From contig JASBSS010000001.1 in NCBI GenBank assembly GCA_030148805.1, positions 186,001 through 250,000 of the forward strand: a stretch of 64,000 bases of DNA. Direction: 5' to 3'. Position 1 is the stretch's first letter. Every line of letters starts with the position of its first letter. The notes under the pieces are model-generated. The model was given only the letters and a program-made list of their open reading frames with translations. It was not told the origin of the DNA and searched no databases. The translations under genes and the position numbers were made by a program. Below, piece by piece: positions 40,232-52,905 of the stretch. The DNA comes from Thiogranum sp. Its GTDB lineage: Bacteria; Pseudomonadota; Gammaproteobacteria; DSM-19610.

Positions 40232-43200
40232 TTAATTGCCGATCAACTCAGCCAGTGGCATGGCCAGCACCCATCCCCAGGAGTTGCCGATATAGACCGT
40301 CTCCCCGGCGACAGTGGGGTGGTTGTAGACGAACGCGCCGCCCACGTGGCGGGTGTTCAGCAACGTGCCGTCGGCGGCATCCAGTGTCAGCAGGTTTTCA
40401 CCGACAGGCTGGATGAGCTTGCCGTCCACCACCACGCCCGGGCCCCAACTGAACTTGCCCTGCGCCGTCGCGGTCACCGTCTCCCACAGCGGCGCGCCGC
40501 TGGTGAGCTCCAGCGCGGCGACGCTCTGCTTGAGCGGGTTGTTGAAATACACCCGCTCGGCATCGAGCATCGGCGTGATCCCCGCGAAGCCGCTAGGGAT
40601 GACACCGGTGGCCAGATAGCGGGTCCAGACAATCTCACCGCTGCTCGCATCCAGGGCATAAGCCAGTACGTTGGCGCTGTCGGCACTGGTATCGGCACCT
40701 GTCAGCACAGTCCCCACGACCAGGCCTTGATCCTGACTGACCGCCGGTGAGACCGCCGCGAAGCCGGTGCTGTAGGTCGTCTCACCGGTGCTCGCCAGAT
40801 CCTGGGTCCAGACCGTCGCCGCGGTATCCAGGTCGATCGCCAGCATCCGGTTAGGCATGGCCAGACCCACCACCATCAGATCGGAACCGGTGGCGGTGCG
40901 GTAGATATTGGCGGAGGAAATGGCGTTGAAGCCCGGCAGGGTCACCACCGGCTGGCCCTCGGCGTTCATGAACGGCGCGACCGGAGCGCCGGTCTCGGCA
41001 TTCACCGCCCAGACCTTGCCCTGGCCGTTGACCCAATAGAGATTGCCGTTGCGATACAGCGGCGTCATGGCGCTGGTGCCGGTGCCGGTATAGACCGTCC
41101 ATTTTTCCACGCCGCTGTCACGGTCGTAGGCGCGCAACAAGGCCCAGTTGTCGCCGATCGAGGTGGCCGGCGATTTCTGTTTGAACTGACCGGTCTTGCC
41201 GAGATTCAGCCAGGGATCGCCGGAGGCCACGATCACCGCCTTCGGAGTCACCAGTGGCTGACCGAAGTTGGCGTTCTGGGAGCGCACGCGCCACAGCAGT
41301 TTACCGGTAGTGGCGTTGATCGCGTCCACGCTGTAGCGGCCGCTGCCCGCGTACACCACGCCCGCCGCGGGCGAGACGCCGCTGCTGGCGCCATAGGCGA
41401 CCTGCATCATCTGGGTGGCGACTTCCTTGCCATACAGGGCTTCGTCCTTGGCCTTCGCCGTCAGCGGCGCGGCGTCCTTCAGCGGCGCCTGCCAGGAGAC
41501 CCCGCTCGGACCGTTGCTGCTGACGCTGTTGTGCGAGGGACCGCCGGCGTAAGCCAGTACGCTGTTGTCGAACAGCGCCGCGTCTTTGGACTTAGGCTTG
41601 GCGCTGGCATCGTAGTACACCGGCTGCGCGGGGGGCGCGACCTCGACCGGAACGATGCCCGCGTCACCCTCGATACCTGAGTTGGTGGTGATGAAGTCCA
41701 CCGGCACGCCGAACACCCAACCCGAGATGGAACTCATCACCGCCAGGTTGCCGATGATCACCGGCTGGTTGACGCCCCAGATGCCGAAAAACCCGGGGTT
41801 CTGGAAGCGGTTGAGGCGCACGCCGGTGGCGGGATCGAGGGTGTGCACGAAACGACCCTCGACGACGATCAGCTTGCCCTGGTGCAGCACCGACGCGGCG
41901 CGCGGACGGTGGGTGGCATCGGCCGGTTCCTCCGGGGAGGACAGATCGCTGGTCCAGAGGTGTTCGCCCGTGGCCGCCTTGTAGGCCTGGTAGGTCCCGT
42001 TGAGCGTGTTTCCGGTGTAGACCACCCCATCTTTCACCATGGGGATGCTGCCCTTGTAGCCGGGCGGACTGTCGCCCTCGCCCATCAGCTGGCTCCATAC
42101 CGGCTGACCGCTGGCGACGTCGATGGCGATCAGGTTGAGATCGTAGACCGGCGCCGATCCGGTACCGGTATTGCTGAACACGGTGGTGAAGGCCAGACCC
42201 AGCTCGGGATCGATGGCCATGGACGTATCGCCCGGCGCGTTGGCCGTGGCGCCCGGCGGGGTATAACTCCAGGCCAGCGACGGCGCACTGGCATCGGTCA
42301 CGTCGACCGCGAAAATACGCCCGGGGCGGATGGTGCCATAGACCAGCAGCGTGCGACCGTCGGCGGTTTTCATCCAGTTGGCCGCCGCCAGGCCGCTGTA
42401 GCCGTTGGTCGGGTTGCTGAAACTGCCAAGCTCGGCGCCCGTGGCGGCATCCAGGACGGCGGTCTTGGCGCTGTTGGTGGTGACGTACAACTTGCCGTCG
42501 AGGAAAACCGGCGTGGGGCGCTCGGAACCCTGCGTCGCGTAGCGCCACAGTGGCTTGCCCGTCAACGCGTCGAATACCTGCAGGCCGGCGAAGTTGGCGC
42601 CGCGATAGTGTGGTTTACCGTTAGCGAAATCGATGGCGTTCTGCACCGTGAAGGCGGCATCGCCGACCGGCACGAAGACCATCAGTTTGCCGTTGACCTT
42701 CTGTACCAGCGCCTGTCCCATGCCGGCGGAACTGGTCACTTCCTGGTGCCAGATCGCGCGACCAGTGGCGGTGTCGATCGCCCAGATTTCGCGCCGGCCG
42801 TTCTGCACGAACGTAATGCCCTGAACCACGGAGACACCGACGACGTTGCCCAGATACTGCGAGGTCGCCGAACCCCAGGCTTCGCCATTGTTGCCGACCG
42901 AGGGCAGCGCCCGCTTCAGATCCTGGAAGTCCAGGCCGGTCAGGGGCGCGGCCCAGAAGGTGCCGTCGGTGAGATAAGCCGGGGCATTGCCGGGCACCTC
43001 GAACACCGGGTCGTGACGCTGGTCGTAACCCAGCTGGGACCACGACGGTGGGAAATACTGACGTTGCGATTTGTACGCCGTCGCCCCGCCGGTGACCACC
43101 GGTGGGACGCTGGTGTAGCCTTCGCAGTGGAACATGGCCGGGGTGCCGACGGTATTCGGGTTGCAAGACGCGGACGAGGCCGCGTGGCTGTTTTGCAAAG

Positions 43201-43258
43201 CGAGAAACGTCGCACTCAAGGCGAACGGCGCCACCAAGGCTTTTGCTAATGCTTTCAT
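40232..43258 (-). CDS. Giant exported PQQ-type beta-propeller protein
   Basis: 1008 residues with a signal peptide (about 1-26). More than a dozen tryptophan-docking style repeats are visible across the length, such as AIDTATGRAIWHQEV, VFDALTGKPLWRYA, QAYKAATGEHLWTSDL, DAINATTGKLLWRVRS, YALDASSGEIVWTRYL and ALELTSGAPLWETV, consistent with two tandem propellers. There is no CxxCH haem site. Cys32 and Cys45 near the mature N-terminus may pair. PQQ-dependent dehydrogenases are near 600 residues with one propeller, so this is an unusual relative and cofactor binding is unproven. Last gene of the cluster under the 47286 operator, though a 230-base gap may hold its own promoter. Confidence 0.85.
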   Translation of the reverse strand: MKALAKALVAPFALSATFLALQNSHAASSASCNPNTVGTPAMFHCEGYTSVPPVVTGGATAYKSQRQYFPPSWSQLGYDQRHDPVFEVPGNAPAYLTDGTFWAAPLTGLDFQDLKRALPSVGNNGEAWGSATSQYLGNVVGVSVVQGITFVQNGRREIWAIDTATGRAIWHQEVTSSAGMGQALVQKVNGKLMVFVPVGDAAFTVQNAIDFANGKPHYRGANFAGLQVFDALTGKPLWRYATQGSERPTPVFLDGKLYVTTNSAKTAVLDAATGAELGSFSNPTNGYSGLAAANWMKTADGRTLLVYGTIRPGRIFAVDVTDASAPSLAWSYTPPGATANAPGDTSMAIDPELGLAFTTVFSNTGTGSAPVYDLNLIAIDVASGQPVWSQLMGEGDSPPGYKGSIPMVKDGVVYTGNTLNGTYQAYKAATGEHLWTSDLSSPEEPADATHRPRAASVLHQGKLIVVEGRFVHTLDPATGVRLNRFQNPGFFGIWGVNQPVIIGNLAVMSSISGWVFGVPVDFITTNSGIEGDAGIVPVEVAPPAQPVYYDASAKPKSKDAALFDNSVLAYAGGPSHNSVSSNGPSGVSWQAPLKDAAPLTAKAKDEALYGKEVATQMMQVAYGASSGVSPAAGVVYAGSGRYSVDAINATTGKLLWRVRSQNANFGQPLVTPKAVIVASGDPWLNLGKTGQFKQKSPATSIGDNWALLRAYDRDSGVEKWTVYTGTGTSAMTPLYRNGNLYWVNGQGKVWAVNAETGAPVAPFMNAEGQPVVTLPGFNAISSANIYRTATGSDLMVVGLAMPNRMLAIDLDTAATVWTQDLASTGETTYSTGFAAVSPAVSQDQGLVVGTVLTGADTSADSANVLAYALDASSGEIVWTRYLATGVIPSGFAGITPMLDAERVYFNNPLKQSVAALELTSGAPLWETVTATAQGKFSWGPGVVVDGKLIQPVGENLLTLDAADGTLLNTRHVGGAFVYNHPTVAGETVYIGNSWGWVLAMPLAELIGN

Positions 43259-43489
43259 TTACTGACTCCTTGTCGACGACGATGGGGTCGTCGAACTGTT
43301 GGTATTGCTATGGTCAACTTGCGATCCCGCCGGTCTGCCATCCAGACTGCGCGGACCCTTTGGGGAGCTGCACCGCTCCCGTTTCGCTACCTCCCTGTAA
43401 GCCCCTGCGACACCCTGCACCGCGACTGCTGGCGGGCCGGCGTCTCCCTGGCGATCCAATCCGCTGTGCCGCGCAAGCGGCAGGCGGCT

Positions 43490-44206
43490 TCAGTCGTACA
43501 TATTGAGCTCCCAGACTTTGTGTCGCGCCCGTAGCTCCTTGGCGACAAACTCGATCTGCGGACCATTGGCACGCAAGCCGGAAACCGACCGGCCGTCGCG
43601 CGTCAGACGGAAATCGACGGCATACAGGCGCAGCGGCACCTGGCCTTGCTTACGCAGCACCCAGTAGCGCACCCAATGGATGCCGTTCGAGTCTTCGAAG
43701 CGCGCGTCGTAGTTTCCAAAGGTCGAGATCAGCCACCGCAGCGGCTGCGGCTTGCGCCAGTCGGCGTCGACGCTGACGACCAGGTGTGACTGATACGGGT
43801 CACTGGGTATGTCATAAGTGGTTTTCTGGGGCTTGCGCCGCACGGTCACCTGGCCGACGCCGCCCTTGGCGTGCAGGATCAGACGGCTGAAGGCGGACAA
43901 ACGCGTTGCCGCGTACGAGGCCGGCGGCTGGCGCTGATCACCGGCCCCGGGCGTATAGATAAGCACCCAATCGCCAGTGGCCCAGTCAGAACCACCGCTG
44001 CCCGCGCCACCGACCTGCAACGCCGTCGGCTCGCCGTAGGTCGTCACCACCTGCTGGGCGCGCTGCTCCAACATATCCAGGCCGGGAAAACTCCGCATTT
44101 GCTCGAGTTCCATGGCCGTAAGAAAAGGCGGGAACGAGGCCAGCAACCACACCAGCGCCGTGGCGTGCAGCCGGCCTGGTCTGCGCTTTACGCGGCGCCA
44201 GCGCAT
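43490..44206 (-). CDS. Exported protein of unknown function
   Basis: 238 residues. The start ATG overlaps the stop of the HupE-like gene (TGATG). A hydrophobic stretch (LHATALVWLLASFPPFLTA) serves as signal peptide. The mature part has LDMLEQRAQQVVTTYGEPTA, a YAATRLSAFSRLILHAKGG segment, and DWRKPQPLRWLISTFG followed by a Trp/Tyr-rich region. No Cys in the mature part and no family recognised. Tight coupling with the HupE-like gene suggests a joint function. Confidence 0.7.
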   Translation of the reverse strand: MRWRRVKRRPGRLHATALVWLLASFPPFLTAMELEQMRSFPGLDMLEQRAQQVVTTYGEPTALQVGGAGSGGSDWATGDWVLIYTPGAGDQRQPPASYAATRLSAFSRLILHAKGGVGQVTVRRKPQKTTYDIPSDPYQSHLVVSVDADWRKPQPLRWLISTFGNYDARFEDSNGIHWVRYWVLRKQGQVPLRLYAVDFRLTRDGRSVSGLRANGPQIEFVAKELRARHKVWELNMYD

Positions 44207-45300
44207 CAGACAGCGTCCCGCACGACGCCGAACACCGCCTGCATCGGCACCCGTTCGAGCAACCACACAAGACCGGCGACACCGGTGGCGATCGAACCGT
44301 AGCGGATCAGCCGCGGCTGCCAGGAACGCTCGCGCCACAGCAACAAAAGCGCTACCAGGGGAACCACGATCAGCAACTGCCCCAGCTCGATGCCCAGATT
44401 GAAGGCCAGCAAGGCACTGAGCAATGCGCCCTTGCTGAAGGTGATCTCCTGCAGGACGCCCACGAAGCCCAGGCCGTGGATCAAACCGAAACCGAAGATC
44501 AGCAGCCAGCGCAGGCGGTGGCGACGCAGCCAGAGATTCTCAATGGCGACATAGACGATGGTCAGCGCGATCAGCGGTTCCACGATCGCCGCGGGCAGGG
44601 AAACCACGCCAAAGAACCCCAGGCCGAGCGTGATACTGTGGGCCAGGGTGAAGGCGGTGACCACCTTGACGGCCTCGCGGATACCCACGGTGCCGAGAAT
44701 CACCGCCACGATGAACAGAACATGGTCGTAGCCGGTCAATATGTGTTCCACGCCCAGCGCGAGAAAACGCTTGATGCGCGAGAGCAACAAGGGCGCTTCG
44801 GCGGAGGAAAGATCGATCTGCGCGCTACGGTGCTTTAGGTCCAGAACCGCCTCGCCCAGCACCTGCTTGAGGTCATCCGCAGGCACGACCCGCACGGTCT
44901 GCACGTGTTTGTCGTCGAGATCCAGCAGGCTCTCGCTGGCAATCGCCAGGCTGGAAACGGGGCCCGCGCACTGATAGCGCAGGTGTACGATCTGGTTGCC
45001 GGATTTCAGCGTTGAAAAGGGCGACATCGCCGCCAAAGAACAGCCCTGCCCCTCATTGCTCAGCAACAAGGTGCGGCGGAAATAATCCTGGTAATACGCG
45101 GTTTCCGTGGTCGCGAACATCAAGCGGTTCAACGCCTGCGGAACCGTCAGGTAATAATTGACCGTCTTGCCGTCCACCACCGCCAGCGCATGACTGACAG
45201 TGCCGATGGATTCGTGCGCCTGCACCGCGGGCACTGCGAGCAACAAAACGAACAGCGATGCCGCACGGTAGCGCAATAGCTTGTAAAGTCGGTTGATCAT
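44206..45300 (-). CDS. HupE/UreJ-family membrane protein with N-terminal periplasmic domain
   Basis: 364 residues from the ATG at 45300. A signal-peptide-like helix is followed by a periplasmic domain (about 28-180; HESIGTVSHALAVVDGKTVN at its start). The C-terminal half is the HupE/UreJ_2 membrane domain with GVEHILTGYDHVLFIVAVIL, TLAHSITLGLGFF, EPLIALTIVYVAIENL and FGLIHGLGFVGVLQE. Conserved His and Asp in helix 1 are thought to bind divalent metal in HupE relatives linked to hydrogenase or urease. Here the neighbour is a metal-dependent phosphoesterase-fold protein, so metal delivery is an attractive but untested role. Confidence 0.88.
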   Translation of the reverse strand: MINRLYKLLRYRAASLFVLLLAVPAVQAHESIGTVSHALAVVDGKTVNYYLTVPQALNRLMFATTETAYYQDYFRRTLLLSNEGQGCSLAAMSPFSTLKSGNQIVHLRYQCAGPVSSLAIASESLLDLDDKHVQTVRVVPADDLKQVLGEAVLDLKHRSAQIDLSSAEAPLLLSRIKRFLALGVEHILTGYDHVLFIVAVILGTVGIREAVKVVTAFTLAHSITLGLGFFGVVSLPAAIVEPLIALTIVYVAIENLWLRRHRLRWLLIFGFGLIHGLGFVGVLQEITFSKGALLSALLAFNLGIELGQLLIVVPLVALLLLWRERSWQPRLIRYGSIATGVAGLVWLLERVPMQAVFGVVRDAV

Positions 45301-45327
45301 GACACTCACCACAAGACCTTGAAGGAA

Positions 45328-45362
45328 GGCACCCCGCGGCTCGGCAAGAGCCACGGGGTGCC
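45328..45362. terminator. Strong intercistronic hairpin
   Basis: A 15-base arm (GGCACCCCGCGGCTC) pairs with GAGCCACGGGGTGCC with one mismatch around a 5-base loop, in the 98-base gap between the first phosphoesterase gene and the HupE-like gene. No T-tract follows on the minus strand. It may lower read-through or protect the upstream message rather than terminate fully. Confidence 0.55.
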
Positions 45363-45398
45363 GGCTGGTGCCGCCTCGGCGGCGATCCGGCGCTTCCT

Positions 45399-47057
45399 TT
45401 ACTTGCCTTTCTTGATTTCGACCGTACGCCCGTCGAGCGTCGGCGAGATGGTCTGCCGGCTCTCGATGTAGTGGATGATTTCATCCACAGCCGTGGTGTC
45501 GGCGACCGGCGTTCCAGACTCCGGCACCGGCGGCACCGGCGTGGTCGCGGCGTAGGTGTAGATCTTTTCCATGTTGGCTGAATCGATCACGCCGTTTTTC
45601 ACCAGGTAATCCTTGCCGATCTTCAGGGTGACCAGGTGTTCGTTGTCAGCGGCGTTTCTCACGTACTTGTAAGTGACGTTGCCATTCCAGCGCATCACAT
45701 CGCCCCCAGGCCAGCGATACGGATCGGGGCCGAATTGCTGATTGAGAAGGTTGTTGATGATGTTGTAGACCACCTTCCCTTTCACCGCGCCGGTGAACAC
45801 CTGGTTATCGCCCCAGTTGGGCGAGACCATGTTCCAGACATCGCCGATGGTCAGCGGTCCCGGTGGAATGGTGGCGCCGTAGCGAATACCACGGAAGTGG
45901 CACAGATCCGCGCCGAAGGTCTCGGCATAGGCGTCACAGAGGAAGTTGGCCATGTTCGACTGGGTGTCGCCGCGACGGAAAATGGTCTTGGCGGTATAGC
46001 CGATCTGGGTTTCCAGATAGGCCTTGAACGGCGCATAAGCCTGTTCGGCCAGGGTCAGGACTTCCGGATCCGGCGTCACGTCCTTGCTGACGATGCGTTC
46101 GACCTTGTAGTCGGCCACGGTGATTTCCCCGTTGGCCTCGACCTTCACGTCCAGCATCCCGAGGTAGGCGCCGTGCGAACCGGCCTGCACCACGATCACG
46201 TTGCGGCCGTCCTTGCCCTGCAGGATGCTGGGATCGACGAAGACGTCGTGGGAATGACCGCCGAGAATGACATCGATGCCGCTTTGCTCGGTGGCGAATT
46301 TCAGATCCTGCAACTTGCCGAAATGAGACATGGCCACGACCAGATCGGGTTGCTCACTGGCACGCAGCCGGGCCACCAGGGCGCTGACCTCGTCGGCGAC
46401 GGCGAAGCCCTCGGGCGAGCCGCTGGGCGCCAGTTGTTCGCCCAGGGCGAAGCCGTCGGTCACCAGCGGGTGCACCAGACCAAGCAACAGCACCTTCTTG
46501 TTGGCCAGTTGCATGATCTTGTAGGGCTGGAACACCAGCTCGCCGGTCTCGGCATCGCGCAAGGTGGTGCCGACCGTGGGGAAGGTGATCATGTCGGTGA
46601 CGCGCAGGAAATCCTCTTTGCCGAAGGCGAAATCGCGGTTACCCGGCACCCAGGCGTCATAGCCCATGGCGTTGAAGATGGGGATGACGGCTTCGCCGCG
46701 CGTCATCTGCGCCACCGGAGAGCCGTCGAAGGTATCGCCGGAATCCAGGAACAACGCGTTGGCGCGCTGCGGTTTGTAGCGTTTGACCAGGGTCACGATC
46801 TGGGCATAACCGCCGAGCTTGCCCTCGGTGGCGGCCAGACCGGCATACTGGTCCACATTCTCCGGTTCGGCGTGGAAGACCGGCATGAAGAAGCCGTGGG
46901 TGTCATTGGTCCACAGCAGTCTGACTTCGTCGGCGTGCGGGTCGGCAGTGGCGCGGGCGGGACCGGCGCCAATCAAAGAAACGCCCAGCAGCGAGCCGGC
47001 CACCAGCGTGCTGGCCACCAGCCTGCCGAGCAGGCCGCGGGGGGAAATCGATCGCAT
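45399..47057 (-). CDS. Exported 5'-nucleotidase/SoxB-superfamily protein, altered active site (GNRD)
   Basis: 552 residues with a signal peptide (cleavage near residue 36). Calcineurin-type metal motifs are present: NDTH (Asp52, His54), SGDTF (Asp108), MSHFG, GGHSH; the C-terminal nucleotidase domain has RGDTQSNMANFLCDAY and RGIRYGATIPPGPLTIGDV. In UshA the GNHEFD motif supplies Asn for metal and a His-Asp pair for catalysis; here it reads GNRDFA, so both catalytic residues are changed while the Asn stays. It is therefore unlikely to be an ordinary 5'-nucleotidase; a SoxB-like thiosulfohydrolase or other phosphoester/sulfur hydrolase is possible. First gene of the operon under the BlaI-type palindrome at 47286. 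Confidence 0.85.
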   Translation of the reverse strand: MRSISPRGLLGRLVASTLVAGSLLGVSLIGAGPARATADPHADEVRLLWTNDTHGFFMPVFHAEPENVDQYAGLAATEGKLGGYAQIVTLVKRYKPQRANALFLDSGDTFDGSPVAQMTRGEAVIPIFNAMGYDAWVPGNRDFAFGKEDFLRVTDMITFPTVGTTLRDAETGELVFQPYKIMQLANKKVLLLGLVHPLVTDGFALGEQLAPSGSPEGFAVADEVSALVARLRASEQPDLVVAMSHFGKLQDLKFATEQSGIDVILGGHSHDVFVDPSILQGKDGRNVIVVQAGSHGAYLGMLDVKVEANGEITVADYKVERIVSKDVTPDPEVLTLAEQAYAPFKAYLETQIGYTAKTIFRRGDTQSNMANFLCDAYAETFGADLCHFRGIRYGATIPPGPLTIGDVWNMVSPNWGDNQVFTGAVKGKVVYNIINNLLNQQFGPDPYRWPGGDVMRWNGNVTYKYVRNAADNEHLVTLKIGKDYLVKNGVIDSANMEKIYTYAATTPVPPVPESGTPVADTTAVDEIIHYIESRQTISPTLDGRTVEIKKGK

Positions 47058-47285
47058 GAATTACTCCTCAAAATGTTTTTGGTTCCTACCCGGGGTTTGG
47101 CGCGATGGCATGACCCAGGGCATTGCTCCGGCGATATTCGCCGGCGCGCTTCTATGTCCCTTAGGTACTGCTCCATCACGACCCTTGGGCGGCATGCCAC
47201 GAGGAGGTCGCGTTCAACCATGGGTCTAACTCGTCACCAGTCCAGCTCCGCGTGAACACCGAAATCTAGGCGTTTATCACAGTAG

Positions 47286-47301
47286 TACTACATATGTAGT
47301 A
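47286..47301. promoter_or_regulatory. BlaI-type operator, perfect 16-bp palindrome
   Basis: TACTACATATGTAGTA, a perfect palindrome matching the BlaI/MecI operator type (TACTACA...TGTAGTA). It lies about 230 bases upstream of the phosphoesterase gene starting at 47057. It is centred inside a larger dyad, since TCACAG (47277-47282) and CTGTGA (47305-47310) are placed symmetrically around it. Two related palindromes precede the second phosphoesterase gene and blaI. Confidence 0.85.
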
Positions 47302-47425
47302 TTTCTGTGATACCGGAAAAACTCCACAAGGTCATGATTCGACAGCTTTATTGAGATTTCGCGAGACTTGAGTAAGCCCAATAGATCTTTATTATATTAC
47401 CGTTTTCTAATATTTAAAAGTTTTA

Positions 47426-47441
47426 TGTGAGTTCCGTCACA
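47426..47441. promoter_or_regulatory. CRP/FNR-family binding site
   Basis: TGTGA-N6-TCACA, an exact match to the core of the CRP consensus. It lies just past the terminator of the preceding gene and about 125 bases from the BlaI-type operator, in the promoter region of the minus-strand gene starting at 47057. Regulation by a CRP-like activator is inferred. Confidence 0.6.
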
Positions 47442-47495
47442 AAAAAAGGCGTTCGTCCTGCCCACTACCCTTGCGGGGTGGACCGGCCGAACGCC
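47441..47495 (-). terminator. Rho-independent terminator after the second phosphoesterase gene
   Basis: GGCGTTCG and CGAACGCC close a long hairpin with an inner stem (CCAC...GTGG around the CCC/GGG pair). On the minus strand it is followed by seven T residues. It sits about 40 bases after the stop of the 47534-49519 gene and isolates it from the next operon. Confidence 0.8.
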
Positions 47496-47533
47496 GTAGG
47501 GGCCGTCCTGGCAGCTAAAAGGTTATTGCATGC

Positions 47534-49519
47534 TTAGTTGTTGATACAGTTCCACTTGAAGTAACCGCAAGGATCCTTTGGATCCGCGGCGATGAAGTAA
47601 TCGCCTACGCCTTCCGGCGGCTGGATGAAATCCGCCTCCGGCCAGCGCGCGGTCCGACTGCTGTCGGTGACATTCATCCCGCGGTCGACGCGCAACGCAT
47701 AGGAACGATCCTGCAGCATGTTGGTGAAGACATCGACCAGCGACCACGGCAGACCGGTCTGCGGATTGCGCACCTGGGTGACATTGTCGAAACCGCCGAT
47801 GCCGCACAGGACCCCCTCGAAATCGATCGGCAGGCGGCGACAACCGGTGACGGTCAGCACATCGGTGTCGTTCACGGGGCTACCGTCGTCGCTGCGGCGC
47901 AGATCGACCAGCCGGCGCGAATCGCCCGCCCCCAGATCGACGCTGATGTCCAGCCCCGCGTAGCCATAGTTCCAGCCACCGCGCGTGTTCCAGCTGTCCG
48001 AGGAATAGGTGGTCTGCAAAATCCCTTCGATCACCTCTTTCATATGCGCCCCCGTGGTGGTGCCGGTGGCCAGTCCGTAGTACATGGGGAAGAACCGGTA
48101 GGCGTCCTCGAGGGTGATATTGCCATCGGCCACCGCGCCGTTTTCCAGGACGTAACCGGCCTCGGGGACGGTCGCGTCCATGCGGAATCCCGGCGTGAAG
48201 GCGATCTCGGTGCCGGTGACATCGCGCATCATCTGCGACAAGCCGACGTTGAAGCTGCTCACCAGCGAGTCGCGGCGACTGAGCACACCCGAGAGCGCCG
48301 TCTCCTGGTTCATGATGCTGCCCGGCGGCAGATGGCCGATGACGGTGTCGATCGGCTGGGTCAGGCGCTGACCGAGGAACGGCACGGCGCGGAAGCTGAC
48401 GTCCTGGTCGAGAAATGGCGCGCGCGCGGCCTGCACCAATGCCTTGACCGTCGGATCCTCCGGGATGCTCTCGTCGATGGGGATCAGCTCCCAGGCCATG
48501 CCCTGATTCGACCAATGCTGCTCGGTACGGGTATTGCGCAGGCGACCCTCGGTGGTCGAGCCTTCATAGCGCAGCGTCACGTCCATGCGACCGAGATACC
48601 CGTCGTTGCCGGCCTCCACCACCGGCGCGTACAAAGCGCTTCCGTCAGCCGCCGCGGTGATCGGCGTGCGGGTCGCCTCGTGGGTGTGGGCCGAGAAGAA
48701 CACGTCGATCAGCCCGTCTGCCAGGCTGCCGTCACGCACCCGGGCGGCCAGGGTCTTGGAAAGATCCATGTCCTTGGGCATGCCCAACTCGCTCATGACG
48801 GCCACGATGTCCGCGCCGGCATCGCGCAGCTGCTGGGCATAGCGCACCAGCAGCCGGGCGTGTTCTTCCCGGCCCCAGGCGAAGTCCATGCCTTCGGCCA
48901 GCATGGGTTGCATCATTTCCACGATATCCGAGGTGAAGCCGATGAACCCGACCTTGATCCCGTCGAATTCGAACATATGGGTCGCCGGCAGAAAATCCTC
49001 CGGCATCGGATCGGTGATGTCGCGCACGTTGGCGCCCAGGTTGGGGAAGTTCGGCCGCTTTATCGGGAACGGATCGGCCAGCCCGGGGAAACTCACCTGC
49101 ACGATCTCTTCGTCCACCCGCCCGTAGCGGGCCCGCGTGACCGCCGGCGTATAGTAGTAATCCCAGTTGCCGGGCACACCGATATCTATCCCCATGGCGT
49201 TCAACGGGTCGGCCACCGCATTGCCCAGGGAATAGAACGCTTCCACGCCCCCATGGAACGTGTCGCCGATGTTCATCACCAGCGTATCGCTGTTTTGCGC
49301 GCGGATCCGGTCGATGACCGTTTTCATGCGGGCCATGCCGCCGCGAATCGCGACCTTGGTGCTGCCGTCGGCTTCGCGCACCAGATCCTTGTGCCCGACC
49401 AGGTTGGCGTGCAGGTCGTTGAGTTCGACAAAGGATATGGTTCGTTCCACGGCCGTGGCGGTACCGAAAACTGCGAGCAGTGCCGACGCTAATAAGGCTC
49501 GTCTTTTAATATGTTTCAT
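47534..49519 (-). CDS. Exported 5'-nucleotidase/SoxB-superfamily protein, altered active site (GNWD)
   Basis: 661 residues with a signal peptide (LLASALLAVFGTATA). Metal motifs: NDLH (Asp35, His37), IGDTF (Asp86), SAHTH (His278, His280). Two family residues are replaced: the catalytic His of GNHE is Trp119 (GNWDYYY), and the metal-binding His of SHLG is Glu244 (SELGMPKD). The C-terminal domain carries extra sequence ending with three Cys residues (PCGYFKWNC and a GCRRLP). From memory, SoxB also has a Trp in the GNHE region, which would favour sulfur chemistry over nucleotide hydrolysis. Monocistronic, with a BlaI-type site (49584) upstream. Confidence 0.85.
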   Translation of the reverse strand: MKHIKRRALLASALLAVFGTATAVERTISFVELNDLHANLVGHKDLVREADGSTKVAIRGGMARMKTVIDRIRAQNSDTLVMNIGDTFHGGVEAFYSLGNAVADPLNAMGIDIGVPGNWDYYYTPAVTRARYGRVDEEIVQVSFPGLADPFPIKRPNFPNLGANVRDITDPMPEDFLPATHMFEFDGIKVGFIGFTSDIVEMMQPMLAEGMDFAWGREEHARLLVRYAQQLRDAGADIVAVMSELGMPKDMDLSKTLAARVRDGSLADGLIDVFFSAHTHEATRTPITAAADGSALYAPVVEAGNDGYLGRMDVTLRYEGSTTEGRLRNTRTEQHWSNQGMAWELIPIDESIPEDPTVKALVQAARAPFLDQDVSFRAVPFLGQRLTQPIDTVIGHLPPGSIMNQETALSGVLSRRDSLVSSFNVGLSQMMRDVTGTEIAFTPGFRMDATVPEAGYVLENGAVADGNITLEDAYRFFPMYYGLATGTTTGAHMKEVIEGILQTTYSSDSWNTRGGWNYGYAGLDISVDLGAGDSRRLVDLRRSDDGSPVNDTDVLTVTGCRRLPIDFEGVLCGIGGFDNVTQVRNPQTGLPWSLVDVFTNMLQDRSYALRVDRGMNVTDSSRTARWPEADFIQPPEGVGDYFIAADPKDPCGYFKWNCINN

Positions 49520-49583
49520 CGTTATCTCCTATGGTCTGGTCCCTCTGGGGGGAAGCCGTCGTAGTCATTGAACGGCTCTTGCG

Positions 49584-49599
49584 TACTATCGTTGTAGTT
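49584..49599. promoter_or_regulatory. Degenerate BlaI-type operator upstream of second phosphoesterase
   Basis: TACTATCGTTGTAGTT keeps the half-sites TACTA and TGTAGT of the perfect palindrome at 47286 (11 of 16 positions identical). It lies 65 bases upstream of the 49519 start codon, in the gap after the M56 protease gene. Weaker symmetry predicts lower affinity. Confidence 0.6.
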
Positions 49600-49634
49600 A
49601 TTAGGAAGGCACAAAAAACCGGTGGGTGCGCTGA

Positions 49635-50534
49635 TCATGGCGCCTGATCGAGCAGCGGCAACACGAATTCGGCCGGCTTGGAACAAACCAGCCAGTACAC
49701 GGAAAAGATCAGCAGGGTCTTGAACAGATTGGGCCACTCGAAGACATAACTGCCGCGGGTTCCCAGGTATTCTAGGCGGGCGCGCAAACCGAGATCGGCG
49801 CGCGGAATCACTTGCAGGAGGCGTTTTTCGTCGACCGCCTGAACCTCGCCCAGCTGTTGAATCTTGCACAAAGTCTTGGCCAGCGTGCCGGGTTTCCCGG
49901 TGAGACGGCAGGCGACCCGATCGCAGGCGAATTCTATTTCCAACGACAACCAGCGATAGGGCCAGGCGGCCACCGGATTCCAGAACGCCAGCCGGCGCAA
50001 GAACAACAACGCCCACTTCAACAGAATGTCGCGCCGATAGACGTGGGCCAACTCGTGGGCCAGCAATACCCGCAGTTCATCGTCATTGAGCTGTTCGCCG
50101 GTCCAGGACGGAAACACAATGGTCGGACGCGTCACCCCCAGCACCATCGGACCGGTGGCCAGATCCGGCGACAGACAAACCCGGGGCACGGGCACCTCCA
50201 ATGCCGCCGCCAGAGGCAGGCAAAGTTCCTCGGCGCGGGCATACCGCCGTCCGCTCTCGATGACCTGGCGGCGATAGGCCAGATAACGGCGCAGATCCCG
50301 CAAACTCAAGGCCGCCGCCACGCCGAGCGAAACCGAGACAATCCCCACCCGACTGTCGGGTGCCAGCCGCAGCAGCGCGAAAAAGGCCGTCAACAACGGC
50401 GCCAGATAGACGAACACCCGCGCGACCGGCGAGTTGAGCTTCAGTACCCGCACCAGGCTCCAGGCGATCCCCACCCAGAGCAGCGACAACAGTGACGCCG
50501 TTAGCGCGAACGTGATCAGGGACAGCGGCGTCAT
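49635..50534 (-). CDS. M56 (BlaR1/MecR1-like) membrane metalloprotease without a sensor domain
   Basis: 299 residues from the ATG at 50534, overlapping blaI as ATGA. Two or three N-terminal membrane helices, a cytoplasmic-facing protease domain with zinc motif HELAH (about 160-164) and the distal EIEFACDR ligand/helix motif, and one C-terminal helix (LLIFSVYWLVCS). BlaR1 itself has about 600 residues with a penicillin-binding sensor after the last helix; here nothing follows that helix but a short tail. Pairing with BlaI implies signal-induced repressor cleavage, but the signal must be sensed by the membrane domain or a partner. Confidence 0.88.
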   Translation of the reverse strand: MTPLSLITFALTASLLSLLWVGIAWSLVRVLKLNSPVARVFVYLAPLLTAFFALLRLAPDSRVGIVSVSLGVAAALSLRDLRRYLAYRRQVIESGRRYARAEELCLPLAAALEVPVPRVCLSPDLATGPMVLGVTRPTIVFPSWTGEQLNDDELRVLLAHELAHVYRRDILLKWALLFLRRLAFWNPVAAWPYRWLSLEIEFACDRVACRLTGKPGTLAKTLCKIQQLGEVQAVDEKRLLQVIPRADLGLRARLEYLGTRGSYVFEWPNLFKTLLIFSVYWLVCSKPAEFVLPLLDQAP

Positions 50535-50920
50535 GGTTTTTTGTCTTCTATCCCGTCGGCCAGATTCTGCAAAAACTCCCGTTCCTGGGGGGTCAACTTC
50601 TCGTCCTTGCCCAGCAGGTGTGGAATCAGCTCGACCATATCCCCGCCGGTGAGAACATCGGCGAAACGCGACCACATCCGCTGCAACACACTGGCGCGGG
50701 TCAAACGCGGTTGATAGCGATAGGCGCGACCGACGCGGTCCTGGTGCAGGTAACCCTTTTCGTACAGTCGCGACAAGGTCGTCATCACCGTGGTGTAGGC
50801 GCGCTGGTGTCCCAGTGCCGTCACCACCTGGTTGACTTGCAGGGGCTCGCCGGCTTTCCACAGAACATCCATGATCACCAGTTCCAGATCGCCCAATTGG
50901 CCTTTGATTTCATCCATCAT
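50531..50920 (-). CDS. blaI: BlaI/MecI-family transcriptional repressor
   Basis: 129 residues from tandem ATGs at 50920/50917. Winged-helix pattern: GDLELVIMDVLWKAGEPLQV, VTALGHQRAYTTVMTTLSRL (recognition helix), YEKGYLHQDRVGRAYRYQP, then the C-terminal dimerisation helices. Repressors of this family bind TACTACA/TGTAGTA palindromes as dimers and are cleaved by their M56 partner. A matching palindrome lies 34 bases upstream of its own start, indicating autoregulation. Confidence 0.93.
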   Translation of the reverse strand: MMDEIKGQLGDLELVIMDVLWKAGEPLQVNQVVTALGHQRAYTTVMTTLSRLYEKGYLHQDRVGRAYRYQPRLTRASVLQRMWSRFADVLTGGDMVELIPHLLGKDEKLTPQEREFLQNLADGIEDKKP

Positions 50921-50953
50921 CTTGAATCGCTTGCGCTCGTCTTGAAAAAATAG

Positions 50954-50969
50954 TACTACCTGTGTAGTA
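50954..50969. promoter_or_regulatory. BlaI-type operator in the blaI / MBL divergent region
   Basis: TACTACCTGTGTAGTA, 14 of 16 positions identical to the site at 47286, with 7-bp half-sites (GTACTAC and GTAGTAC) in perfect symmetry. It lies 34 bases upstream of blaI and about 95 bases upstream of the divergent MBL gene, so one repressor could control both. Confidence 0.85.
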
Positions 50970-51064
50970 CCTGTCAACTTTATTCGTATATCATAATACG
51001 CTGTATATGTAATTCATGCGCTACACTTTTTCACTCCCTTAAGCCAAAACCTAGGAAGTTATCC

Positions 51065-52243
51065 ATGTCAGCCGCCCTTTTACCCGCTTCGCTTGCGCCG
51101 ATTCCGGCACGCTTATCCACCCACCCGGTTTCCGCAGCCGGCGTGGGTCTTTACCTGTTGCTCTGTCTCCTGTTGCCGACAGCTGGCGTGGCGGCGCAGG
51201 AGCGATCGTTCATGGAGCGCATGCAGGCGATGGGTGAGGCGATGCCCGACAAGCGCTCGCGCCCGGCGGGTCTGGCGGTGACGATACTCGGCAGCGGCGG
51301 CCCGATGGCGATGACCCAGCGCGCCTCGGCCGGCTACGTCGTCTATCGCGACCGGGTGCCGCGGATTCTCGTCGACGGCGGCGGTGGCACCTTCGAACGT
51401 CTCGGCGAGGGCCGGATCTTCGATCTGGTGCGCATGGACACCTGGTTGTTCACCCATTTGCATATCGATCATTCCGCCGAATTTCCCGCCATCGTGAAAT
51501 CGATGTACTTTCTGCGTCGCGGCTACAACAAGATGTCGCCACTCACGGTGATCGGTCCCGACGCCTGGGGCGACTTTCCCAGCACCAGCGAATTTGTCGA
51601 CGCTTATTTCAATAAAGAGCACGGCATCTACCGTTATTTCCATCACTTCATGGAAACGATCAAGGCCGGCGATCTCAGTTTCGACACCAAGGATCTGGCC
51701 TACGATTACGACCAGGTCAAAAGCCCGGAGAAAATCCTGACTCGCGACGGCATGAGCATCAGTTACATCCCCGTCATGCACGGCCCTCGCGCGAGCAAGA
51801 CACCGGCGGTGGCCTACCGCGTCGATTACGCCGGACAGTCGATCACCTTCAGCGGCGATCTGAACTCGAAAAGCGGCAATCTCGTCAGGCTGGCGAAAGG
51901 CAGCGACATACTGATCTACGACGCCGCTCTGGGGCCGGCGCAGGATTTCGATCCGCCTGAGGTCTTCCACACACCGCCCGCGGACATTGGCCGCGCGGCG
52001 AAAGAAGCCGGGGTGAAAACCCTGGTCCTGTCGCATTTCATGCCACCTTATGTGCCGATGAAAATCGAGCGTATCCTGGCCGCGGTCAAGGACGAGTTCG
52101 ACGGCGAGGTCATTCTCGCGGAGGATCTGATGACATTGTCGGCCCAGCGTGGTGCCTCCTCTTCGTCCAGCGGCGATACCCAGGAGGAATCCCCGCGCAA
52201 AGGGCCCATGCAACGCTTTCGCGAGCGCCTGCAATCCCAGTAG
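51065..52243 (+). CDS. Exported MBL-fold hydrolase (RNase Z-like branch)
   Basis: 392 residues with a long N-terminus before the hydrophobic signal segment (GLYLLLCLLLPTAGVAA). MBL core: TILGSGGPMAMTQRASAGYV, VDGGGGTFERLG, metal site THLHIDHSAEFPA, TFSGDLNSKSG, YDAALGP and LSHFMPPYVP. The C-terminal 35 residues are Ser/Glu/Arg rich and look disordered. It shares each motif with the protein at 22662. It is divergent from blaI across the operator at 50954, so it is probably the plus-strand arm of the BlaI regulon. Confidence 0.88.
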   Translation: MSAALLPASLAPIPARLSTHPVSAAGVGLYLLLCLLLPTAGVAAQERSFMERMQAMGEAMPDKRSRPAGLAVTILGSGGPMAMTQRASAGYVVYRDRVPRILVDGGGGTFERLGEGRIFDLVRMDTWLFTHLHIDHSAEFPAIVKSMYFLRRGYNKMSPLTVIGPDAWGDFPSTSEFVDAYFNKEHGIYRYFHHFMETIKAGDLSFDTKDLAYDYDQVKSPEKILTRDGMSISYIPVMHGPRASKTPAVAYRVDYAGQSITFSGDLNSKSGNLVRLAKGSDILIYDAALGPAQDFDPPEVFHTPPADIGRAAKEAGVKTLVLSHFMPPYVPMKIERILAAVKDEFDGEVILAEDLMTLSAQRGASSSSSGDTQEESPRKGPMQRFRERLQSQ

Positions 52244-52297: not shown

Positions 52298-52768
52298 TCA
52301 CCGCTGGCGTCCGCCCCAGCCGCTGACACCGTAGCCGGAACGCTGCTGCATCCGGTCTTGCATCTGCTGCTGTCGGTATAGCAGATTGTCCTGCACGTTC
52401 TGCTTGCCGTTGTCGATCACCTGCTGATGTTCCTCGGTGCTCATCTGCGACCAGGTCTGCTTGCGCTGGGCCGCGGCGTTGGCTTTCGTCTGTGCCTGGC
52501 TACGCGCCTGTTCGGCACTTTGCTGGTAGGACTGATGGCGCTGGTCGGGCGTCTCGCCGCGCCAGGTCTGGGCCCGTTGTTGCGCCTGCTGGGCGCGCTG
52601 CTGATACTGCTGCTGGCGCTGTTCGGGCGTCGACTGCAACACGGTGCTGTGGCGTTGCGACGGCGTGGTGACAGACCCCGTGTCGTCGGCGCGCGCCAGG
52701 CCATAGGGAAGAGTCGCGACCAATGCGGCCGCCAGACCGACTGTGAACCTTTTCGTGTGACGCTTCAT
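52298..52768 (-). CDS. Exported Gln-rich repeat protein
   Basis: 156 residues; AAGGAGAT precedes the ATG at 52768. Signal peptide ends near YGLARA. The mature part is a helical, Gln/Ala/Arg-rich array of degenerate repeats: a T/S-P-E/D-Q-R motif, a long Q-rich helix and a closing QTW (RAQTWRG, RKQTWSQ), then MSTEEHQQ and a Gln/Met-rich tail with QQRSGYG. The pattern loosely recalls CpxP/Spy-type periplasmic stress proteins but the LTxxQ motif is not clear. It is divergent from the OmpR-type regulator, 137 bases away, and is a natural candidate target. Confidence 0.7.
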   Translation of the reverse strand: MKRHTKRFTVGLAAALVATLPYGLARADDTGSVTTPSQRHSTVLQSTPEQRQQQYQQRAQQAQQRAQTWRGETPDQRHQSYQQSAEQARSQAQTKANAAAQRKQTWSQMSTEEHQQVIDNGKQNVQDNLLYRQQQMQDRMQQRSGYGVSGWGGRQR

Positions 52769-52905
52769 AACATCTCCTTCATAATAGTCCGCTAGTACCA
52801 CACCGGAACTCCGGCTTGGGAAGAATACTGGCACAGTCAGGTAACGGATGAATGTCGCGGTCGTTACTTTGTGTTACAGAATATTTCACATCTGGGTAGG
52901 GAAAT

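What the first reader, a model, noticed from the sequence alone, without database searches (positions are those of the whole stretch)
40232..52243. Candidate new BlaI/M56-controlled periplasmic system with two SoxB-superfamily proteins
A BlaI repressor and an M56 protease are normally the switch for beta-lactamase or PBP2a. Here no beta-lactam gene is adjacent. Instead three BlaI-type palindromes lie upstream of blaI-M56 and the divergent MBL hydrolase (50954), a phosphoesterase-fold gene (49584), and another phosphoesterase-HupE-unknown-propeller operon (47286). All predicted products except blaI are exported or membrane proteins, which suggests one inducible periplasmic pathway. Known: BlaI family binding geometry and cleavage by M56 partners. 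Inferred: that all these genes form one regulon and one pathway, possibly in phosphoester or inorganic sulfur metabolism.
Basis: partly seen in the sequence, partly recalled or inferred. Interest (0 to 1): 0.88.

Follow-up and report, generated by a model that had tools for sequence, protein, structure and literature searches.

The report
Penicillinase-type switch beside sulfur enzymes
In bacteria close to the sulfur oxidiser Thiogranum, a repressor-protease pair of the kind that normally turns on penicillin resistance sits with, and probably controls, exported enzymes that resemble tetrathionate- and thiosulfate-splitting enzymes, so a drug-resistance type of switch seems to have been reused for sulfur metabolism.

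Summary
A BlaI-family repressor and an M56 protease stand with three BlaI-type palindromes: between blaI-M56 and a divergent MBL gene, before MPE661, and before MPE552-hupE. The perfect form occurs twice in the genome, both here. All three recur in place in a second species; at MPE552 the flanks have diverged but the half-sites remain. The blaI operator lies inside a TTGACA-16-TACTAT promoter.

The enzymes point to sulfur. The 'unknown propeller' is a tandem tetrathionate-hydrolase (TetH) homologue: catalytic Asp kept in the first half, Ala in the second. Both 'phosphoesterases' are SoxB relatives lacking the catalytic His of 5'-nucleotidases. Relatives lie beside SoxA/TsdA-type cytochromes, and a fourth candidate operator precedes a second TetH/SoxB-like cluster.

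Most likely: an M56-released BlaI regulon for polythionate hydrolysis; inducer unknown, as this M56 has no beta-lactam-sensor domain. The M56 is in 2 of 20 family genomes, and relatives of the enzyme genes also occur without it. New variant of known kinds.

The parts
50531..50920 (-). blaI: BlaI/MecI/CopY-family repressor, 129 aa, no cysteine
   Evidence: Pfam Penicillinase_R 90.5 bits over cut-off 22.6; best NCBIfam CopY 37.8 bits, below cut-off; no Cys
49635..50534 (-). M56 membrane protease, 299 aa, HELAH; overlaps the blaI stop; no C-terminal beta-lactam-sensor domain
   Evidence: Pfam Peptidase_M56 65.4 bits, cut-off 31; only residues 122-208 match blaR1_generic, a 585-position profile; motif
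50954..50969 (.). operator 1 TACTACCTGTGTAGTA, between blaI and MBL, inside the blaI promoter
   Evidence: perfect; genome-wide count; promoter 50977-50950; identical in G380
50950..50977 (-). blaI promoter TTGACA-16-TACTAT
   Evidence: same in G380
49584..49599 (.). operator 2 TACTATCGTTGTAGTT, 65-80 nt upstream of MPE661
   Evidence: in G380 TACTATTATTATAGTT (3 mismatches)
47286..47301 (.). operator 3 TACTACATATGTAGTA, 229-244 nt upstream of MPE552
   Evidence: in G380 TACTACTATGATAGTA within diverged flanks
47391..47418 (-). candidate MPE552 promoter TTTAAA-16-TATAAT, about 90 bp before operator 3
   Evidence: like site at about the same distance in G380; consensus match only
51065..52243 (+). 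exported MBL-fold hydrolase, HLHIDH, RNase Z / phosphodiesterase-like
   Evidence: Pfam Lactamase_B_2; NCBIfam, all below cut-offs; weak PDB hits to ELAC, an arylsulfatase and PNGM-1; motif
47534..49519 (-). MPE661: exported SoxB/5'-nucleotidase-superfamily enzyme
   Evidence: model pLDDT 84.1, SoxB first in fold comparison
45399..47057 (-). MPE552: exported SoxB-like enzyme
   Evidence: TIGR04486 253.4 bits against cut-off 550
44206..45354 (-). HupE/UreJ_2-family membrane protein; the domain covers residues 197-343, the N-terminal part looks extracytoplasmic by eye
   Evidence: PF13795 156 bits
43490..44338 (-). conserved unknown protein; a relative follows the hupE relative on C25 and in G380
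   Evidence: no family; relatives
40232..43258 (-). tandem TetH-like double propeller, 1008 aa; D344 at the catalytic Asp position, A835 in the second half
   Evidence: phmmer to 6l8a 5.9e-43 over residues 70-523; half comparison

Best explanation
A BlaI dimer binds ACTAY-N4-RTAGT operators and represses (a) itself, its M56 partner and the divergent MBL hydrolase, (b) the SoxB-like enzyme MPE661 and (c) the operon MPE552-hupE-unknown, probably with the TetH-like double propeller. When an envelope signal activates the M56 protease, BlaI is cleaved and the set is expressed. The products hydrolyse polythionates in the periplasm: the propeller opens tetrathionate (its first half carries the catalytic Asp, its second half acts as the fixed partner of a pseudo-dimer), the SoxB-like enzymes remove sulfonate groups as sulfate, and HupE supplies metal. 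Shown here: genes, homologies, operators, their conservation, the promoter overlap at blaI and the residues. Inferred: binding, repression, cleavage, inducer, substrates and the order of steps.
For: Perfect operators: 2 in the assembly, both here. Three sites conserved in G380; at MPE552 the 40-base flanks (compared without gaps) are 14/40 and 11/40 identical while 11 of 12 site positions agree. blaI operator within -35/-10 in both species. Propeller to tetrathionate hydrolase 5.9e-43, Asp325 equivalent kept (role of Asp325 from PMC10859504, passage). MPE552 and MPE661 score best on SoxB among NCBIfam models and lack the GNH(D/E) His. A SoxB-like + double-propeller pair of the same genome lies near a SoxA/TsdA-domain cytochrome on C6. 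In G205 the MPE661 relative lies in a cluster with a SoxA-like cytochrome (below cut-off) and a SulP-like transporter. In G381 an MPE552 relative adjoins a TetH-like propeller, cut by the contig end. Named relatives of MPE661 include Hydrogenophilales, Chromatiaceae, Thiogranum and Sulfurimonas records, groups known for sulfur oxidation (recalled). A SoxB acting on tetrathionate is reported for Erythrobacter (PMC7608252, section 18).
Against: No binding or expression data. Operator 2 is imperfect; its G380 counterpart (3 mismatches) is matched by 145 of 2000 shuffles. Operator 3 lies about 90 bp downstream of the consensus promoter found there, so simple promoter overlap is shown for blaI alone. 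The 231-bp gap before the propeller. Among solved structures, MPE661 hits only nucleotidases by sequence (19 hits, SoxB not among them), and MPE552 hits a 5'-nucleotidase slightly better than SoxB. Purified TetHs work at acid pH (PMC10859504) and Thiogranum is neutrophilic (recalled). The M56 has no evident sensor, and BlaI has no Asn-Phe pair like the S. aureus cleavage site (by eye). Of 20 family genomes, 3 have the double propeller and 2 the close M56, so it is not core metabolism. Remote M56-BlaI pairs in the class lie beside metal efflux genes at some loci.
Confidence: 0.6

Rival explanations
1. Metal-responsive regulon: the short M56 senses metal or envelope stress, BlaI is released, and the set maintains metal supply (HupE) for exported dinuclear metallo-hydrolases.
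For: Short M56-BlaI pairs elsewhere in the class lie near heavy-metal efflux genes at 4 of the 14 loci fetched, the 4 that I scanned: L184 (CzcA/CusA model over its cut-off), L176 and L189 (CzcA-like, genes cut by the end of the stretch, below cut-off), L180 (a fragment weakly like a divalent-metal exporter subunit). HupE family present; a Zip-like gene, below the Pfam cut-off, is near the C25 copy.
Against: No efflux gene in this cluster; those M56s are remote (28-41% over stretches of 80-155 aa); BlaI has no cysteine, unlike CopY metal sensors (recalled). Does not explain the TetH homologue.
Confidence: 0.2
2. Phosphate or nucleotide scavenging: MPE552 and MPE661 are 5'-nucleotidase/UshA-like phosphoesterases.
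For: Pfam Metallophos and 5_nucleotid_C; 5'-nucleotidase 2z1a is the top PDB sequence hit for MPE552 (3.6e-27; SoxB 2e-24); MPE661 hits nucleotidases only; nucleotidases score only about 1-2 Z below SoxB for the MPE661 model.
Against: The GNH(D/E) His is Arg in MPE552 and Trp in MPE661, as Trp in SoxB; SoxB is the best NCBIfam model for both; TetH homologue in the set.
Confidence: 0.08
3. A true beta-lactam switch: the divergent exported MBL is a lactamase and the downstream genes are passengers.
For: BlaI-M56 ancestry; MBL fold; weak PDB similarity to PNGM-1 (8.3e-6).
Against: No beta-lactamase model among the NCBIfam hits at E 0.001; M56 lacks the penicillin-binding sensor; two further operators precede SoxB-like genes.
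Confidence: 0.05
4. BlaI controls only its own promoter (and MBL); the other palindromes are not functional.
For: Only operator 1 is both perfect and inside a consensus promoter in both species.
Against: Operator 3 is perfect and kept in diverged flanks in G380; operator 2 is in the same place in both.
Confidence: 0.12

Closest known systems
BlaI-BlaR1 / MecI-MecR1 of Staphylococcus aureus
   Same: Repressor plus adjacent M56 protease; palindromic operator at its own promoter
   Different: No penicillin-binding sensor domain on the M56; neighbours are SoxB/TetH-like exported enzymes; no lactamase or PBP model hit among the genes scanned
Tetrathionate hydrolase (Af-Tth 6l8a; Ac-TetH)
   Same: First half homologous over 454 residues; catalytic Asp conserved; N-terminus looks exported
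   Different: Tandem of two propellers, the second with Ala at the catalytic place; Af-Tth is a homodimer of single propellers (PMC10859504, passage). Ac-tetH is regulated by the RsrS-RsrR two-component system (same review), not BlaI
SoxB thiosulfohydrolase
   Same: Superfamily; fold (MPE661 model); Trp in place of the nucleotidase His (MPE661); SHxG His kept in MPE552
   Different: Far below the SoxB equivalog cut-off; separate clades; the genome has its own true SoxB (887 bits); MPE661 has Glu where SoxB has the SHxG His
TsdA-SoxB thiosulfate oxidation of Erythrobacter flavus 21-3
   Same: Idea of a SoxB-type enzyme hydrolysing tetrathionate (PMC7608252)
   Different: That SoxB was identified by proteomics and mutants; here divergent relatives, with a TetH homologue and probable BlaI control

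Membership tests
BlaI/MecI/CopY repressor | Penicillinase_R domain over gathering score | tested here: met
   90.5 against 22.6 bits
BlaI/MecI/CopY repressor | inverted-repeat operator at its own promoter | tested here: met
   50954, inside TTGACA-16-TACTAT
BlaI/MecI/CopY repressor | binds and represses, relieved by cleavage | not testable with these tools
   needs bench work
BlaR1/MecR1 beta-lactam sensor | M56 domain with HExxH | tested here: met
   65.4 bits; HELAH
BlaR1/MecR1 beta-lactam sensor | C-terminal penicillin-binding sensor domain | tested here: not met
   protein ends at 299 aa; blaR1_generic matched only at profile positions 164-250 of 585; Pfam lists only M56 and M48
Tetrathionate hydrolase | sequence homology to a proven enzyme | tested here: met
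   6l8a, 5.9e-43, residues 70-523
Tetrathionate hydrolase | catalytic Asp (Asp325 in Af-Tth) | tested here: met
   D344 in the first half; the second half has Ala
Tetrathionate hydrolase | single propeller forming a homodimer | tested here: not met
   two homologous halves in one 1008-aa chain; model too poor to confirm blades (pLDDT 55.7)
Tetrathionate hydrolase | hydrolysis of tetrathionate | not testable with these tools
   assay needed
SoxB (TIGR04486) | score over equivalog cut-off 550 bits | tested here: not met
   MPE552 253.4, MPE661 113.8; true SoxB on C6 887
SoxB (TIGR04486) | fold | tested here: met
   MPE661 model to 2wdc Z 33.4, rmsd 2.2, 480 aligned; shared with nucleotidases at Z about 31-32. 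MPE552 was not folded
5'-nucleotidase / UshA | GNH(D/E) catalytic His | tested here: not met
   NRD in MPE552, NWD in MPE661; 2z1a has GNHE; that this His is catalytic is recalled
Metallo-beta-lactamase | match to a beta-lactamase family model | tested here: not met
   none among the 9 NCBIfam models listed at E 0.001; best are cyclic-nucleotide phosphodiesterase and RNase Z, below cut-off

The most novel reading that the evidence does not exclude
A beta-lactam-type proteolytic switch (BlaI with a sensor-less M56) has been captured as the induction system of a neutrophilic polythionate pathway. It controls, on at least two contigs, fused TetH pseudo-dimers with one live and one dead active site together with SoxB-like sulfonate hydrolases, and is triggered by a sulfur species or by metal need at the membrane.
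Probability: 0.35. Interest if true: 0.78.

Novelty: new variant of a known kind. Interest (0 to 1): 0.62.

Why it matters
If true, BlaI-M56 is a general envelope-to-gene proteolytic relay and beta-lactam sensing only its best-known use; a probably neutral-pH organism would have a candidate tetrathionate hydrolase (a 2024 review says TTHs have been purified and characterised only from acidophiles, PMC10859504 passage); and several SoxB-superfamily proteins that family scans'-nucleotidase-like would become testable polythionate enzymes. The fused propeller with one mutated half gives a direct test of whether TetH needs two active sites.

Tried and rejected
Structure of the propeller: the AlphaFold model was poor (mean pLDDT 55.7, 5 rows); not used, and no fold search was run on it. 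Fold search for MPE661 put SoxB first, but nucleotidases score nearly as high, so it does not settle the substrate.

Mobile origin: no match for M56 in the plasmid collection and only remote propellers there, 11 records, all under 60% identity; GC over 34-57 kb runs 0.57-0.66 without a sharp step.

Tree of 30 SoxB-superfamily rows: MPE552, MPE661 and true SoxB form separate clades, but several long branches meet. One row (SoxB_L140) was a wrong reading frame picked by my script; I rely on the tree only for the separateness of clades.

Site statistics: the six 3-mismatch places were set aside. The relaxed motif was written after I had already seen the C6 site, so its discovery is not independent. 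In one search one of five double propellers (prop2 of G380) was not split by my string search and aligned whole; its residues were read from that row by eye.

Gene prediction in fetched loci used a home-made codon score trained on this GC-rich window; it failed in AT-rich loci (in L122 and L124 it even missed the known MPE552 relative), so absence of blaI there is not established.

Search depth: in the class and phylum searches only the best 2 (propeller), 3 (MPE661, MPE552) or 6 (M56) first-look candidates per genome were scored, and the genomes are samples (369 and 398).

Papers: listings only, except those opened: passages of PMC10859504, PMC9834060, PMC7593790, PMC6397845, PMC12565901, PMC7735108 and PMC6543871; abstract and section 18 of PMC7608252. 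The only two papers holding words beginning 'BlaI' and 'tetrathionate hydrolase' match through the name Blair. So no paper in this library links the two by that search; most subscription journals are not in it.
Full report
1. What is there. The window is G000:C38:186001-250000. The nearest named relative found is Thiogranum sp. BWSM_146 (L040, JASBST010000109.1), where cydA-cls-propeller-unknown-hupE-MPE552-MPE661-M56-blaI<>MBL-p178-RR runs in the same order; the eight proteins from propeller to MBL are 69-93% identical. Family scans give BlaI, M56, MBL fold, two SoxB/5'-nucleotidase-superfamily proteins, HupE/UreJ_2 and a PQQ-type propeller; one gene has no family.

2. Operators. TACTACNNNNGTAGTA: perfect at 47286 and 50954, 2 mismatches at 49584. 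Genome-wide, 12 places have up to 2 mismatches, and the 2 perfect ones are these. Shuffling each intergenic region 2000 times gives an equally good site 0 (47286), 8 (49584) and 0 (50954) times; for the G380 counterparts 3, 145 and 0. In G380 the 47286 counterpart stands where the 40 bases on either side, compared without gaps, are only 14/40 and 11/40 identical, while 11 of the 12 fixed site positions agree. The 49584 counterpart is weaker (3 mismatches) but keeps its place and symmetry. The blaI operator lies inside TTGACA-16-TACTAT in both species: classical steric repression, by inference. Before MPE552 the best promoter-like site (TTTAAA-16-TATAAT, 47418-47391) is also found in G380 and lies 86-90 bp upstream of operator 3 in both, so repression there would be by road-block, or another promoter is used. 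These promoters are consensus matches only (3 found in the region, 1.5 expected).

3. A fourth candidate. The relaxed form ACTAY-N4-RTAGT, which covers the three window sites and their G380 counterparts, was counted in 234.5 kb of own-genome DNA in hand: 4 matches, 0.25 expected: the three window sites and C6:86256. That last site lies upstream of a LuxR-type gene, followed on the same strand by a SoxB-like gene and a second double propeller (52% identical). In 332 kb of relatives' DNA (partly overlapping loci) it matches only the same four places in G380 plus one in a Sulfurimonas locus (L043:20175). G380 has the C6 site in a stretch that is conserved anyway, so conservation adds little; I had seen the site before writing the relaxed motif; and the own-genome loci were mostly chosen because they hold SoxB- or TetH-like genes. 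It is a lead, not a finding. Two 2-mismatch places on C27 lie near another SoxB-superfamily gene but do not fit the relaxed form.

4. The propeller is a tandem tetrathionate-hydrolase homologue. Residues 70-523 match Af-Tth (6l8a) at 5.9e-43. In the printed alignment, D344 pairs with chain residue 296; the sole Cys, Cys301 in the review, is chain residue 272, so the offset is 29 and this is Asp325, the residue whose D325N change abolishes activity (PMC10859504, passage). D344 is invariant in all 5 double propellers aligned, and an Asp stands there in the 4 single-propeller relatives. The second half is homologous to the first (29% over 394 residues, 7e-35) but has Ala (A835) at that place in all 5. 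Af-Tth is a homodimer, so a fused dimer with one live site is the natural reading; it is inferred. No other double propeller was found in the 368 other genomes of the class sample (single-propeller relatives at E <= 1e-20 in 4 of them), and no match at E <= 1e-40 in the 397 other genomes of the phylum sample; in the family 3 of 20 genomes have it.

5. The two 'phosphoesterases'. Among NCBIfam models both score best on SoxB but far below its cut-off of 550 (253.4 and 113.8 bits); the genome has a true SoxB on C6 at 887 bits, and the SoxB model matches 17 stretches in ten genes. In the alignment, MPE552 keeps DxH, GD, SHxG and GHxH, but the nucleotidase GNH(D/E) is GNRD; MPE661 has GNWD (SoxB: HWE), Glu instead of His in SHxG, and AHTH. 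Against this, sequence search of solved structures ranks a 5'-nucleotidase just above SoxB for MPE552 and lists no SoxB for MPE661. The MPE661 model (pLDDT 84.1) aligns best with SoxB (Z 33.4) and nearly as well with CD73/UshA types (Z about 31-32). They are SoxB relatives, not SoxB, and in my reading unlikely to be ordinary nucleotidases.

6. Neighbourhoods of relatives. C25 of the same genome carries MPE552-like (67%), HupE (59%) and unknown (47%) without blaI or propeller, beside a cytochrome c; G380 has a similar three-gene set on C50. C6 carries SoxB-like plus double propeller near a cytochrome with a SoxA-TsdA domain (Pfam 36.8 bits, cut-off 27) and a PdsA-like dihaem cytochrome (below the NCBIfam cut-off). 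In G205 the MPE661 relative lies in a cluster with SulP-like, SoxA-like and PdsA-like genes (all below NCBIfam cut-offs), an MMPL transporter and another SoxB-like gene; G080 looks alike by eye (its genes were not scanned). None of 8 loci with MPE661 relatives in other genomes (L046-L048, L050-L054) shows a blaI or M56 match, nor do 8 loci with MPE552 relatives (L122-L129), though gene prediction failed in two of the latter. In G381 an MPE552 relative (79%) directly follows a TetH-like propeller that the contig end cuts. MPE661 relatives in named records are from Hydrogenophilales, Chromatiaceae, Thiogranum and Sulfurimonas, plus one unplaced gammaproteobacterium. Together this says sulfur, and more than once tetrathionate chemistry.

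7. Distribution of the switch. Close M56 homologues: 2 of 20 family genomes, G000 and G380; BlaI itself was not searched across genomes. In the class sample (369), 11 others have only remote M56s (28-41% over 80-155 aa). Of 14 such loci fetched, I scanned four for families; they lie by heavy-metal efflux genes, one over its model's cut-off (L184), the others partial or weak (L176, L189, L180). G381 (99% complete) has the propeller (85%) and unknown gene but no M56 or MPE661 hit at the limits used; its contig ends just upstream, so the separation there is likely, not proven.

8. Mechanism. BlaR1 cleaves BlaI directly and senses beta-lactams through its C-terminal domain (PMC9834060, passages). 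This M56 ends at 299 aa, and BlaI has no cysteine, so direct thiol or CopY-type sensing is unlikely and a membrane signal to M56 is the simplest path. What that signal is remains open: a sulfur species, or metal shortage or stress. The enzyme steps are inferred from homology: TetH (PMC10859504) and a SoxB acting on tetrathionate (PMC7608252, section 18).

9. Verdict. Confirmed observation; regulon likely (about 0.8); sulfur, probably polythionate, function likely (about 0.7); the two together about 0.6. New variant of known kinds.

Noticed in passing
G000:C6:86255-86270 (L063:18256, L161:2256): Fourth BlaI-like palindrome TACTACTAGGATAGTC, upstream of a LuxR-type gene, a SoxB-like gene and a second TetH-like double propeller, near a TsdA/SoxA-type cytochrome; also present in G380 (L158:13929).
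   Followed up: partly
G000 contigs C6, C14, C25, C27, C30, C38: Unusual expansion: besides a true SoxB, nine further SoxB-superfamily genes in one genome (the two of this cluster included), four of them in open frames of 730-930 aa.
   Followed up: partly
L176, L180, L184, L189: Short M56-BlaI pairs lie next to heavy-metal efflux genes (some only partial or weak matches) in other genomes of the class.
   Followed up: partly
window 43490-44338; L087:7247-7942; L159:6998-7648; L155:7483-8133: Conserved protein of unknown family; follows hupE in the window, on C25 and in G380 (twice); in G381 the upstream part is cut off by the contig end.
   Followed up: no
window 52298-52834: Gln/Arg-rich, apparently exported 178-aa protein without a family, kept between MBL and a response regulator in both species.
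   Followed up: no
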